This document shows, piece by piece, positions 55,085-60,824 of a DNA stretch of 64,000 bases. Position 1 is the first letter of the stretch. Each line of letters starts with the position of its first letter. The notes beneath the pieces are model-generated. The model did no database searches and had not been told where the DNA came from. It saw nothing but the letters and a program-made list of their open reading frames with translations. The stretch covers positions 5,929,501 through 5,993,500 of the forward strand of contig NZ_BNJI01000001.1 of NCBI RefSeq assembly GCF_016587415.1, read 5' to 3'. Source of the stretch: Ktedonobacter sp. SOSP1-85 (GTDB taxonomy: Bacteria > Chloroflexota > Ktedonobacteria > Ktedonobacterales > Ktedonobacteraceae). Both the position numbers and the translations under genes were made by a program.

Positions 55085-55343
55085 TCAAGAGAATATGGCA
55101 AACAGTCAGGAACCCCATGTCTAAAGACAGGGGCTTGTGAAAGCAAGCCTGGACCTGACCAGTCTCAGTCTTGAAATACAGACTACGTTAGGAGCGAAAC
55201 TAGGTACGTTGGGATGCGTTGCCAGTCCCAACCTCTACGGTGCAACATTAAACATCCCTAGAGGGTTAAGGACGTGTGTTGCACGATAAACCGTTCCATA
55301 ACATTGACGAGGCAAACATCACCTACGAGAGTAGAGGCTCAAC
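55085..55343 (+). ncRNA. IscB omega RNA (HEARO-type)
   Basis: The sequence directly before iscB folds densely. GTCAGG (55105-55110) pairs with CCTGAC (55154-55159) around two hairpins (55113-55133 and 55133-55148). GTTGGGA/TCCCAAC lies at 55208-55232, GTGCAAC/GTTGCAC at 55240-55284, and a long-range CCTCTAC (55232-55238)/GTAGAGG (55331-55337) closes them. This is the expected position and size of the IscB guide RNA scaffold. The guide would be the roughly 16-20 bases before 55105, which come from the host HNH gene. Confidence 0.75.
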
Positions 55344-56633
55344 TTGAGCAACGTATTCGTGATTGATAGTGGCTACAAACCATTGAATCCAGTCCATCCT
55401 GCACGAGCGCGGCTTTTGCTCACACAGGGGAAAGCGTCAGTGTATCGGAGATACCCTTTTACGATCATTCTGAAACGGGTGGTAGAACAGCCAGAGGTCC
55501 ACACCTTGCGCCTCAAGCTCGATCCAGGCAGTAAAACGACGGGAATTGCCCTGGTGAACGACACCAACGGCCACATTGTGTTCGCGGCTGAACTCTCACA
55601 TCGAGGGCATGCCATTAAAGATCGTCTTGAGAGTCGTCGTGCAAGTCGCCGGGGGCGTAGGCAGCGTCAAACACGCTACCGCAAGCCGCGATGTAACAAT
55701 CGACGGAGGAAGAAGGGATGGTTGCCACCATCGTTAGAAAGTCGCCTTGCCAACATTCTGACGTGGGTAGCTCGCCTGTGTCGCTATGCTCCCATTGCCG
55801 CTCTCAGTCAGGAGCTTGTGAAGTTTGATCTGCAATTGATGGAGAATCCCGACATTGCAGGCGTGCAATACCAGCAAGGAACCTTGCAAGGCTATGAGGT
55901 CAGGGAATATTTGCTGGAAAAATGGGAACGCACGTGTGCTTATTGTGGCAAACAAGAGGTCCCGCTTCAGGTAGAGCATATCCATCCACGTGCCCGTCGT
56001 GGGACGAACAGGATAAGCAATCTTACCTTGGCTTGCCAAGCATGCAATACTGCCAAAGGCACTCAGGAGATCGACGTCTTCTTGCAAAAGAAACCTGACG
56101 TGCTCAAGCGTCTTCTCGCTCAGGTCAAAAAGCCACTCAAGGATGCCAGCGCTGTCAATAGCACACGATGTGCTTTGCGAGAACGGCTTCAAGCTCTCGG
56201 CTTGCCTATCGAGTGTGGGAGCGGTGGCTTGACGAAGTGGAATCGTAGCACGCGAGGACTGCCCAAAACCCACTGGCTCGATGCAGCTTGCGTAGGCAAG
56301 AGCACGCCTGATGTGCTTGTGCAGAAGGGAGTCATTCCACTGCGAATCAAAGCGACAGGGCATGGGAGGAGGCAAATGTGTGTGCCTGACAAGTATGGCT
56401 TCCCCAAGCAGCACAAAGAGCGCAAAAAGACATTTCTTGGGTATCAAACGGGTGATCTGGTCAAAGCCATAACGCCCAAAGGACCATTTGAAGGACGGAT
56501 AGCCATTCGTCATCGGCCTTCATTCCGACTGCAGAAGGTCGATATTCACCCCAAATATATGCGGTGTGTGCAACGATCCGATGGCTATGAGTATACACAG
56601 AAAGGAGTGCGCCATGCGGGGACCCCTGGCTAA
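55344..56633 (+). CDS. iscB: RNA-guided nuclease IscB
   Basis: IscB, the ancestor-type relative of Cas9, nicks or cuts DNA with a guide RNA encoded beside it. The 429-residue protein has the PLMP domain (FVIDSGYKPLNPVHPARA), RuvC-I with D60 (LKLDPGSKTTGIAL), an arginine-rich bridge helix (98-125), RuvC-II with E157 (ALSQELVKF), an HNH domain with C198/C201, E211-H212 and C231/C234, and RuvC-III with H310 and D313 (THWLDAACVG). All catalytic residues appear intact. TTG 55344 has GAGG six bases upstream. Related IscB from Ktedonobacter racemifer is experimentally active (established knowledge). Confidence 0.95.
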   Translation: MSNVFVIDSGYKPLNPVHPARARLLLTQGKASVYRRYPFTIILKRVVEQPEVHTLRLKLDPGSKTTGIALVNDTNGHIVFAAELSHRGHAIKDRLESRRASRRGRRQRQTRYRKPRCNNRRRKKGWLPPSLESRLANILTWVARLCRYAPIAALSQELVKFDLQLMENPDIAGVQYQQGTLQGYEVREYLLEKWERTCAYCGKQEVPLQVEHIHPRARRGTNRISNLTLACQACNTAKGTQEIDVFLQKKPDVLKRLLAQVKKPLKDASAVNSTRCALRERLQALGLPIECGSGGLTKWNRSTRGLPKTHWLDAACVGKSTPDVLVQKGVIPLRIKATGHGRRQMCVPDKYGFPKQHKERKKTFLGYQTGDLVKAITPKGPFEGRIAIRHRPSFRLQKVDIHPKYMRCVQRSDGYEYTQKGVRHAGTPG

Positions 56634-56895: not shown

Positions 56896-57167
56896 AATTT
56901 TTAGATGGTACAAAGAGTATAAAAGTTCCCTTCAATGTATGCATTGTGGCATCAGCCATCCTGCCGTACTTCAATTCCACCATCGAGACCAATCAAGCAA
57001 GAGTTTTAACATTGCAACGATGGCTATAAAACCAACTAGCCAGAAACGACTTGTTGAGGAAATTGCGAAATGTGATGTACTCTGTGTTAACTGCCACACA
57101 AAGCTGCATTGGGAGGAAAAGCATAAAAAATCGTAGAGAAGAATAAAGTTTGGAGAAATAAAAAAAG

Positions 57168-57240
57168 AGCCGATGGCCGGACTCGAACCGGCGACCAATC
57201 GCTTACGAAGCGATTGCTCTACCAACTGAGCTACATCGGC
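57168..57240 (-). tRNA. tRNA-Thr (CGT anticodon)
   Basis: On the minus strand GCCGATG/CATCGGC form the acceptor stem, GCTCAGTTGGTAGAGC the D arm, CAATCGC/GCGATTG the anticodon region with CGT, and GGTTCGAGTCC the T loop. No CCA is encoded. tRNA genes are common integration borders; it lies between the two OMEGA elements. Confidence 0.95.
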
Positions 57241-57592: not shown

Positions 57593-58030
57593 ATGTCTGC
57601 TACTTCTCCGTCGAATCAGCTCTTTGCTCGCCCCCTGATGCCCTTTACTTCCTTCTCTGACCTGGTTGCTCCCTCTTTTCTGCCGCAGCCGTGGGTGATT
57701 CAGAACTTGCTGCCTGTGGGCTTGACGCTGCTCAGTGGTGATCCTCGCTGTGGGAAGACCTCGCTGGCGCAGCAGTTGATGCTTGATATCGCGACCGGTA
57801 CGACGCCATTTGGGACGCATGACACCACGCTCGATGATGCCTCGCAGCATCTGCGGCCCAGGCGGGGGAGCATTTTCTACCTCTCTCTGACCAGTTCGAC
57901 GCCCCATTTGCATGAGATCCGCTCTCGCATCTATGCCTCGCGCCCAGATATACCCGCGCTGAGCAACTTGTTTGTGACCAATGCCTTTAAGCCGCTGACA
58001 CCAGGTGAGGGACTGCAAGAGCTTTGTGAC

Positions 58031-59821
58031 TGGAGAGGGCTTTAGCCCGCCGCAAGCCACGGTTCTTTAGACCGTGGTGAGGCGTGTTATTGGGCTTGAG
58101 CCCTTGTCAAGCATAGTACGAATAGAACATATGTTTGGCAATTTCATATCAGCATAGTATTCTCTAAGAGAGATACCATCTATTGTGTGAGAGGAGGTAC
58201 TGAAAATGGCAAAAGCCACGAAAACCATCAGGCAGGCGTTGCACTATCCGCCGCAGTATGCTGCCTACTTCGCGGCAAACCAGGTCCTCTTCAATCGCGT
58301 CGTGGCCTTTTATTTCGACTGTATCCAGGCACACGAAGGTCTTCTTGCCCTCAAAAATAAGGAGGCCCTCACGGCCCTGGAGAAACTCACCCATGGAACG
58401 GGTGCGAACCCCCATCCAATCATGCCACTCACCGATCTCGCGCCAGATATCCCGGCGATGTTCAGACGTGCCGCCATCAATGCGGCCCTTGGTTCGGCCC
58501 GCGCATTTTCCTCCTCCCTCAAAACATGGCGAGCACGGAAGCAGAAACACGAAGCCAAACAGACGAGATCGGGAGGGAAGAAGAAGCCATTCAAGGAGCG
58601 ACCACCAGTCCCGCCCCGATCATGGAACAAGTCGGCTCCCTTCTATGCGGGAATCTTTCGTGAGCGCCATCATCACGCTCTCATGCTCAAGGTCTGGACC
58701 GGTTCCTGCTGGTCCTGGCTCAAGGTTCACACGTTTTCACGTGATCTGCCCGAAGGGTTCGAGATGGGGAGCCCTTCCCTGGTGCGCATCAGGGATCGCT
58801 GGTGGCTACATACTCCCATCGAAAAGACCTTCGAGACTCCCGCCAAAGTCGTAGAGCAACTCACCACCGCCCAGACACGTATCTGCTCGGTGGACCTCAA
58901 TCTTGATCATCACGTAGCTGTGTGCAGCGTCCAGACCGTTGACGGCACCATCCTGGCTACTTCCTTCATCGGAAATGGCGCAGCGGTATCGGGCTGTAGG
59001 AAGCAACTGCTTGGACGCATTGCACGCAACCGATCTCAGACTGGTATCATTGCCGAGAACGAACAGGACAATGCCGACCTCTGGGCCAAAATCAGGCACG
59101 TGGACGAACAGATCGCGCATCTGGTGAGCGCTCGCATTGTCCAATTCGCGAGCGAGCACAAGGCGAGCATCCTGGTGTTTGAACATCTGGGCAACCTGCA
59201 ACCGGAGAAGGGCACGTATTCGCGCCGCAGCAATACCAAACGCGCCTACTGGATGAAAGGGCGCCTGTTCCGCTACGCAAAGTACAAAGCCTGGCATGCA
59301 GGCGGCATCATCACCTGCCGTGTGAATCCGCGCAATACGAGCAGAGAATGCCATCGCTGTCACGCTGCGGTCATTCGCTATAACCAGGGACACCCTGTGG
59401 AAGGCTACACCCCCGGTGCCGCGCTCTGTCTCTGCCCACAATGCCAGATGCGCGATCATGCCGACAGAAATGCCAGTATCCGTGTCGGACAACGCTTGAT
59501 CGAGCGGACGCAAGACCCGTTGAAGGAAAAGCCTCATGCTCGTTCGCAACGTGCGAAGAGGGAGTCGAAAGACTCAGGTGTTGGGATCTCCCAGGATGCC
59601 AAACGCCAGATGGGACCATCTTTCCCTGCGGCCAGGCGTGGAGATCATGCCAACGGGGATGGCACCCCCCAGGGGAGAAGGCGCCGGATGGGCGCGCCTC
59701 TCCCAGATATTGCGTCCCAACTACGGGTTCACTTTGAGTAGTGGCCACGCCACCTGTCTCACGAACCCGACTACGGCACAGTGTCAGAAGCTGCTCGGCT
59801 TTAGCCGATGCGGAGTGTCAC
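58031..59821 (+). mobile_element. IS200/IS605-type TnpB element (1791 bp)
   Basis: Restoring the host ATPase frame fixes the element length. TGG occurs at both joints, so the element is 58031-59821 or 58034-59824. The left end has hairpins GGGCTTTAGCCC and CCACGGTTCTTTAGACCGTGG (split by a loop), the right end GCTCGGCTTTAGCCGATGC. Insertion lies after GTGAC without target duplication, as expected for this family. No tnpA is present. Confidence 0.88.
58206..59741 (+). CDS. tnpB: RNA-guided nuclease TnpB
   Basis: TnpB cuts DNA with a guide RNA from its own 3' end. The 511-residue protein has the N-terminal OrfB helix/WED region, RuvC-I with D230 (CSVDLNLDHHVAV), RuvC-II with E326 (ILVFEHLGN), a zinc ribbon with C382/C385 and C410/C413, and RuvC-III with D420 (HADRNASI). 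All three acidic residues are present, so it should be active. A basic tail of about 80 residues after the RuvC part overlaps the likely guide RNA region. GGAGGT precedes ATG 58206. Confidence 0.93.
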   Translation: MAKATKTIRQALHYPPQYAAYFAANQVLFNRVVAFYFDCIQAHEGLLALKNKEALTALEKLTHGTGANPHPIMPLTDLAPDIPAMFRRAAINAALGSARAFSSSLKTWRARKQKHEAKQTRSGGKKKPFKERPPVPPRSWNKSAPFYAGIFRERHHHALMLKVWTGSCWSWLKVHTFSRDLPEGFEMGSPSLVRIRDRWWLHTPIEKTFETPAKVVEQLTTAQTRICSVDLNLDHHVAVCSVQTVDGTILATSFIGNGAAVSGCRKQLLGRIARNRSQTGIIAENEQDNADLWAKIRHVDEQIAHLVSARIVQFASEHKASILVFEHLGNLQPEKGTYSRRSNTKRAYWMKGRLFRYAKYKAWHAGGIITCRVNPRNTSRECHRCHAAVIRYNQGHPVEGYTPGAALCLCPQCQMRDHADRNASIRVGQRLIERTQDPLKEKPHARSQRAKRESKDSGVGISQDAKRQMGPSFPAARRGDHANGDGTPQGRRRRMGAPLPDIASQLRVHFE

Positions 59822-59840
59822 TGGATTCACTGCTATGCCG
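59660..59840 (+). ncRNA. TnpB omega RNA (3' end plus guide)
   Basis: For TnpB the guide RNA spans the gene's 3' end and the right end of the element, and the guide continues into host DNA. The conserved GCTCGGCTTTAGCCGATGC hairpin and GGAGTGTCAC end at 59821. The guide would begin TGGATTCACTGC, i.e. the downstream half of the ATPase gene. The 5' limit is not known. Confidence 0.55.
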
Positions 59841-60824
59841 ATTCGTGTCTACTGGTGATCGATGATCTCGCCTCGTTGCGCTCGCTCTTCCCTGGCAATG
59901 ATCGGGAGCTGCTGGCCCTGTTGCGGCGCCTGGCGGAGGAGCACCAGATTAGTATTCTCTTGCTGCACTCCTGCAAGCGCTCTTCGCCTCTGGCTGCGCA
60001 GGTCGATCATCACTTGCATCTTAAGCGCCTTCCTGTCTCGACGTTCTACACGCTTGAGGTCCATGGTAATCGGCTCTTGCCTATCTCGTACCTTTTGTAT
60101 TGCCCGGCTGATCGGCTCTCCTTTCGCCTGGCGAGCCTGGAGGAAGAGCGGGCGCTGGATACGTTGAGCGCTCATAAGACGCTGACACGCGAGCGCCTGG
60201 GCCTCCTGCGCCTCTTCGATGAGTATGGCTCGATCCTGACGCCACGGCAGGTTGCCGCTCTTCTCCAGCTCGACTATGACTGTGCACGCCAGCTCTTGAG
60301 CAAGATGGTGAAGGCTAATCTCTTGACGGCACCGGCGCGTGGCCGCTATGCCATTCACCCCTTTATTAAGCCGCTTGTGCCCTCTCTTCTTGCACACCAT
60401 CCCTTCCTCCCCAAATTCGATATCGCTCACATTCCCGCCGATGAAGAGGCGGAAGTAGAAGCGGTACCCGCTACCATAGAGCCAGCCGCGCAAGAGGAGA
60501 AGCTGGATGCGGAGCCAACCGCTGAAATCGCGACCGCTCACGATGCATTTGATACAACTGCTTCGACTTCCGGCGAGTCTGTCAGTCACCCTGGCCATCA
60601 GGGGCCTGAAACGCCAATCGCTCACAATCAGCCTTCTCCTCAGTGGCAGGCTTCAGGCCTGAACGGAAATATCCCTGGCAGTCCCGGCTACCTCCCTGGG
60701 TATCAGGCGAACGCTTCACAAATGCCGCCACCCGCCATCTAACCTGACCTCGCTGACGTTCATAGGCCTCTACGGCTGACTGCACCTTTACAACCTAATT
60801 GCCTTGATGCACGATGTTTTATGC

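What the first reader, a model, noticed from the sequence alone, without database searches (positions are those of the whole stretch)
57593..60742. TnpB element inside an ATPase gene with base-exact reconstruction
Removal of 1791 bp restores GAC-TGG-ATT and a continuous 452-residue ATPase with Walker A and B on either side. The guide end points at the host sequence and GTGAC precedes the joint, giving a testable target-adjacent motif. The ATPase may be an accessory replication or defence gene.
Basis: partly seen in the sequence, partly recalled or inferred. Interest (0 to 1): 0.7.

Follow-up and report, generated by a model that had tools for sequence, protein, structure and literature searches.

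The report
TnpB jumping element splitting ATPase gene

Summary
Removing window 58031-59821 (1791 bp) restores a 452-codon ATPase frame. Nature confirms it: Ktedonobacter robiniae (96% nt) and K. racemifer (88%) carry the gene uninterrupted with exactly that junction, and paralogs are also unsplit. The insert is a TnpB-only, IS200/IS605-type (IS1341-like) element. About 17 relatives sit in the same genome and about 40 in K. racemifer, at unrelated sites. The right end is fixed (GGAGTGTCAC); the next host bases, the presumed guide, vary. TnpB keeps its RuvC D-E-D and zinc-finger cysteines. A Y1 TnpA + TnpB element with related ends and the same TGAC rule is in the genome and is the likely mobiliser. 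The element is 97% identical to a K. racemifer copy although the host locus is only 88% identical, implying lateral spread. The ATPase is an AAA_25 (RepA/RecA-like) protein of unknown role; defence is unsupported. Known kind, new member.

The parts
57593..58030 (+). 5' part of the interrupted ATPase gene (codons 1-146, Walker A GDPRCGKTS)
   Evidence: joined ORF; AAA_25 PF13481 5.4e-15; 96%/86% aa whole homologs
58027..58030 (+). TGAC target-adjacent motif immediately left of the element
   Evidence: TGAC in 56 and CGAC in 2 of 58 distinct insertion sites in Ktedonobacter genomes
58031..59821 (+). TnpB-only IS200/IS605-type (IS1341-like) element, 1791 bp
   Evidence: multi-copy family with fixed ends and variable flanks; empty site in two sister species
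58051..58077 (+). left-end subterminal hairpin region (around CCACGGTTCTTTAGACCGTGG), presumed TnpA recognition
   Evidence: fold; conserved in copies; role inferred from IS608/ISDra2
58206..59741 (+). tnpB, 511 aa: RuvC D230, E326, D420 and four zinc-finger cysteines (C382, C385, C410, C413)
   Evidence: Cas12f1-like_TNB 7.4e-11, guided_TnpB NF040570 7.4e-27 but 94.6 vs cut-off 100, invariant residues
59592..59821 (+). right end / presumed reRNA (omega RNA) scaffold overlapping the tnpB 3' part, ending in hairpin GCTCGGCTTTAGCCGATGC + GGAGTGTCAC
   Evidence: consensus fold of 35 copies; terminal stem varies with pairing kept: CGGC..GCCG, GGGC..GCCC, CGGT..ACCG; transcription not tested
59822..59837 (+). 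presumed 16-nt guide (TGGATTCACTGCTATG), host ATPase sequence
   Evidence: position by analogy with ISDra2 (PMC8612924); in four Ktedonobacter genomes the only other matches with TGAC+guide at up to 3 mismatches are the two sister alleles
59822..60742 (+). 3' part of the ATPase gene (Walker B LLVIDD, C-terminal part) to the stop codon

Best explanation
A non-autonomous, TnpB-only IS200/IS605-type element was inserted, in the single-strand 'peel and paste' manner and probably by a Y1 TnpA supplied in trans (candidate: the TnpA+TnpB element at G000:C3:1020684), directly 3' of a TGAC in the ATPase gene, splitting it after codon 146. This happened after the split from K. robiniae. The element's right-end RNA would read into the ATPase gene, so its 3' end (TGGATTCACTGCTATG) is a guide for exactly the re-joined or never-occupied allele. 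TnpB would cut that allele next to TGAC, and repair from the occupied copy would put the element back, so the insertion is retained although it breaks the gene. Shown: insertion, exact joint, TGAC rule, family, intact TnpB residues, trans TnpA candidate. Inferred: trans mobilisation, RNA production, cleavage, repair-based retention.
For: Empty site in K. robiniae and K. racemifer. 17 long relatives in the genome and about 40 in K. racemifer. TGAC/CGAC at 58/58 sites, fixed right end. No target duplication. TnpB with invariant D-E-D and Cys4 in 12 aligned copies, and ORFs of at least 512 codons in most of 35 copies. TnpA+TnpB element with related ends, after TTGAC, with its own empty site in K. 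robiniae. Element 97% identical to a K. racemifer copy versus 88% for the host locus. Mechanism for this kind of element: PMC8612924.
Against: No tnpA in the element itself. No expression or cleavage data. The NCBIfam guided_TnpB cut-off is narrowly missed (94.6 vs 100 bits). No nearly identical second copy in this genome (best 93%), so current activity here is not shown.
Confidence: 0.93

Rival explanations
1. The ATPase is naturally split or the two ORFs are separate genes, and the element merely lies between them.
For: Both halves are open and have possible start codons.
Against: Two sister species and all readable paralogs are continuous at this point; neither half has both Walker motifs.
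Confidence: 0.01
2. IStron-like insertion: the element is spliced out of RNA so the gene still works.
For: IS605-type elements fused to group I introns are known (PMC4227781); the G000 lineage shows 7 synonymous and 1 non-synonymous codon changes, i.e. no decay.
Against: No group I or II intron in 57900-59950 even at permissive threshold; element ends are ordinary IS605-type; the lack of decay is equally explained by a recent insertion.
Confidence: 0.03
3. The TnpB is domesticated and retained for host regulation (TldR-like) rather than for transposon retention.
For: Copies persist across species; one insertion is shared by G000 and K. robiniae at the same site (L016/L130).
Against: Nuclease residues are intact and the family is mobile and multi-copy at unrelated sites, the opposite of domesticated TnpB.
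Confidence: 0.03

Closest known systems
ISDra2 TnpB / IS200-IS605 family (Karvelis et al. 2021, PMC8612924)
   Same: Insertion 3' of a short fixed motif without target duplication, RuvC TnpB, right-end RNA running into host DNA as guide, subterminal hairpins.
   Different: Motif is TGAC rather than TTGAT; no tnpA within the element; TnpB is larger (511 aa) and divergent.
IS1341-type (TnpB-only) elements
   Same: IS605-like ends and a lone tnpB, presumably mobilised in trans.
   Different: No difference found apart from sequence; naming rests on my own knowledge of the IS classification.
IscB/HEARO element at window 55105-56633
   Same: Neighbouring element with an RNA-guided nuclease gene.
   Different: HNH/RuvC IscB with an upstream HEARO RNA (Rfam 154.9 bits).

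Membership tests
IS200/IS605 TnpB-containing elements | TnpB with RuvC D-E-D and C-terminal zinc finger | tested here: met
   D230, E326, D420, C382/C385/C410/C413 invariant in 12 copies; PF07282; profile match to solved TnpB/Cas12f, best 1.9e-5
IS200/IS605 TnpB-containing elements | Insertion 3' of a short fixed motif, no target duplication | tested here: met
   TGAC/CGAC at 58/58 sites; empty sites
IS200/IS605 TnpB-containing elements | Subterminal hairpins at both ends | tested here: met
   folds of left and right ends
IS200/IS605 TnpB-containing elements | Own Y1 TnpA (autonomous members only) | tested here: not met
   absent from the element; candidate in trans at G000:C3:1020837. Fits the TnpB-only (IS1341-like) subgroup, not autonomous IS605
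IS200/IS605 TnpB-containing elements | RNA-guided cleavage of the re-joined site | not testable with these tools
   needs bench work
NCBIfam guided_TnpB NF040570 | score at or above curated cut-off | tested here: not met
   94.6 against 100 bits, E 7.4e-27; divergent TnpB
IStron | group I intron in the element | tested here: not met
AAA_25 (RepA/RecA-like) ATPase (host gene) | Pfam AAA_25 over gathering score | tested here: met
   56 bits against 27
anti-phage defence ATPase (host gene) | match to a defence family profile over most of its length | tested here: not met
   only local, weak matches to AbiEi, mad8 and others

The most novel reading that the evidence does not exclude
The element works as a reversible switch and one-way genetic drive on this ATPase: TnpA excision restores the gene exactly, while TnpB, matching the K. 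robiniae allele with one mismatch and the same TGAC, destroys incoming intact alleles and converts them to the interrupted form.
Probability: 0.08. Interest if true: 0.5.

Novelty: new member of a known kind. Interest (0 to 1): 0.22.

Why it matters
It is a clean natural test case: an occupied allele, two natural empty alleles (one with the motif intact and one guide mismatch, one with the motif lost), a TGAC rule from 58 sites, and a candidate trans TnpA in the same genome. It does not change what is known about TnpB, but offers a divergent TnpB with a short, well-supported motif.

Tried and rejected
GTGAC as motif: rejected, the base before TGAC is roughly even (A20 T14 C13 G11). Naturally split gene: rejected. 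IStron: no intron found. Defence gene: no support. Apparent excess of matches between the element's first bases and the host's next bases (5 of 47 with at least 3 bases against 2.2 expected on shuffling, p about 0.04): may partly reflect the A/T bias at +1, not pursued. A phmmer search of the ATPase against solved structures found nothing. A duplicate of the tRNA-Thr 3' end that would mark an integrative element: not found in the window. A first regular expression for element ends was faulty and was redone; a first codon comparison with K. racemifer used the wrong strand and was redone.

Full report
Observation. Deleting 58031-59821 (1791 bp) gives a continuous 452-residue protein; the break can slide from -2 to +4 without changing the product. 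The joined sequence aligns through the joint, without a gap there, to K. robiniae at 96% over 2649 bp and to K. racemifer at 88% over 2681 bp. At the joint the three read TGTGACTGGATTCAC, TGTGACTGGATTCAT and TGCGATTGGATTCGC.

The element family. DNA search of the own genome found 17 further long relatives (77-93% identity, one of them partial) and short end-only relatives; K. racemifer has about 40 and K. robiniae several. Left and right ends are constant and flanks differ. In 58 distinct insertion sites the element always follows GAC, 56 times TGAC and twice CGAC; the base before is not constrained. The right end is GGAGTGTCAC in nearly all copies, and the first host base after it is A or T in 39 of 47. 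This is the insertion rule of IS200/IS605 elements, with TGAC in the role that TTGAT has in ISDra2 (PMC8612924). One insertion is shared by G000 and K. robiniae at the same site (L016/L130), whereas the ATPase insertion is absent from both sisters and so is most simply younger than the G000/K. robiniae split.

TnpB and its RNA. The 511-aa protein matches the Cas12f1-like TNB domain and solved TnpB/Cas12f chains; it is divergent enough to fall just under the NCBIfam guided_TnpB cut-off. D230, E326, D420 and the four zinc-finger cysteines are invariant in 12 aligned copies, and most of 35 full-length copies have a long open tnpB. The right-end 230 bases fold with a terminal hairpin whose stem changes on both sides between subfamilies. 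By analogy with ISDra2 the RNA's 3' end would be TGGATTCACTGCTATG. A search with TGAC plus this guide at up to 3 mismatches finds only this locus and the two sister alleles in four genomes: K. robiniae has the motif with one guide mismatch, K. racemifer has lost the motif (CGAT). That the guide matches the joint is a necessary consequence of the insertion, not separate evidence.

Mobilisation. The element has no transposase. The genome has many Y1 transposase genes, but of the 30 Y1 loci examined only one (L085) lies in an element with the same type of left end; it carries tnpA (Y1_Tnp 4.4e-37) and a different tnpB, follows TTGAC, ends in GGAGAAGTCAC, and has its own natural empty site in K. 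robiniae. It is the best candidate to mobilise the TnpB-only family in trans; this is inference.

History. The element is 97.4% identical to a K. racemifer copy but at most 93% to any other copy in its own genome, while the host locus is 88% identical between the species. That points to lateral spread between Ktedonobacter lineages. Polarised codon changes in the ATPase since the split from K. robiniae are 7 synonymous and 1 non-synonymous in the interrupted lineage and 12 and 12 in the intact one, so there is no sign of decay; a recent insertion is the simplest reading.

The host gene. It is an AAA_25 (RepA/RecA-like) ATPase, one of a family with several paralogs per Ktedonobacter genome; hits in other genera of the family are weak. 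It lies between tRNA-Thr(CGT) and a Ham1 family gene. No defence family fits it; an accessory replication role is only suggested by the domain.

Verdict. Observation confirmed; interpretation right in outline, with TGAC replacing GTGAC and the defence suggestion unsupported. It is a new member of a known kind.

Noticed in passing
L027:2940-3515, L031, L026, L030; K. racemifer L095, L099, L103: TnpB-less elements of 576-579 bp with the same ends and TGAC rule; they keep the left end and a region about 70% like the tnpB 3' end/right-end RNA, with no long ORF and no Rfam match. They may be miniature elements that supply guide RNA to TnpB in trans.
   Followed up: partly
K. racemifer loci L106, L109, L112, L114, L117: Five elements of about 390 bp with the same ends and TGAC rule, all of the same length and 93% like the 5' part of the 576-bp elements: a recently amplified miniature family.
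   Followed up: partly
window 55105-56633: Complete-looking IscB element: HEARO RNA (154.9 bits) followed by a 429-aa IscB, about 1 kb upstream of the interrupted gene.
   Followed up: partly
window 57161-57240: Synteny with both sister species ends at the 3' end of tRNA-Thr(CGT), while K. robiniae and K. racemifer are collinear across it, so G000 has a rearrangement or integrated DNA to the left. The anticodon stem of this tRNA also differs, with pairing kept, between G000 and K. robiniae.
   Followed up: partly
L016 / L130: A TnpB element copy at the same site in G000 and K. robiniae, with a further insertion of about 1.4 kb just after it in G000 only.
   Followed up: no
L026:2030-2292 (-): HEARO RNA match overlapping a group II intron domain match, possibly an IscB element next to or inside a group II intron.
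   Followed up: no
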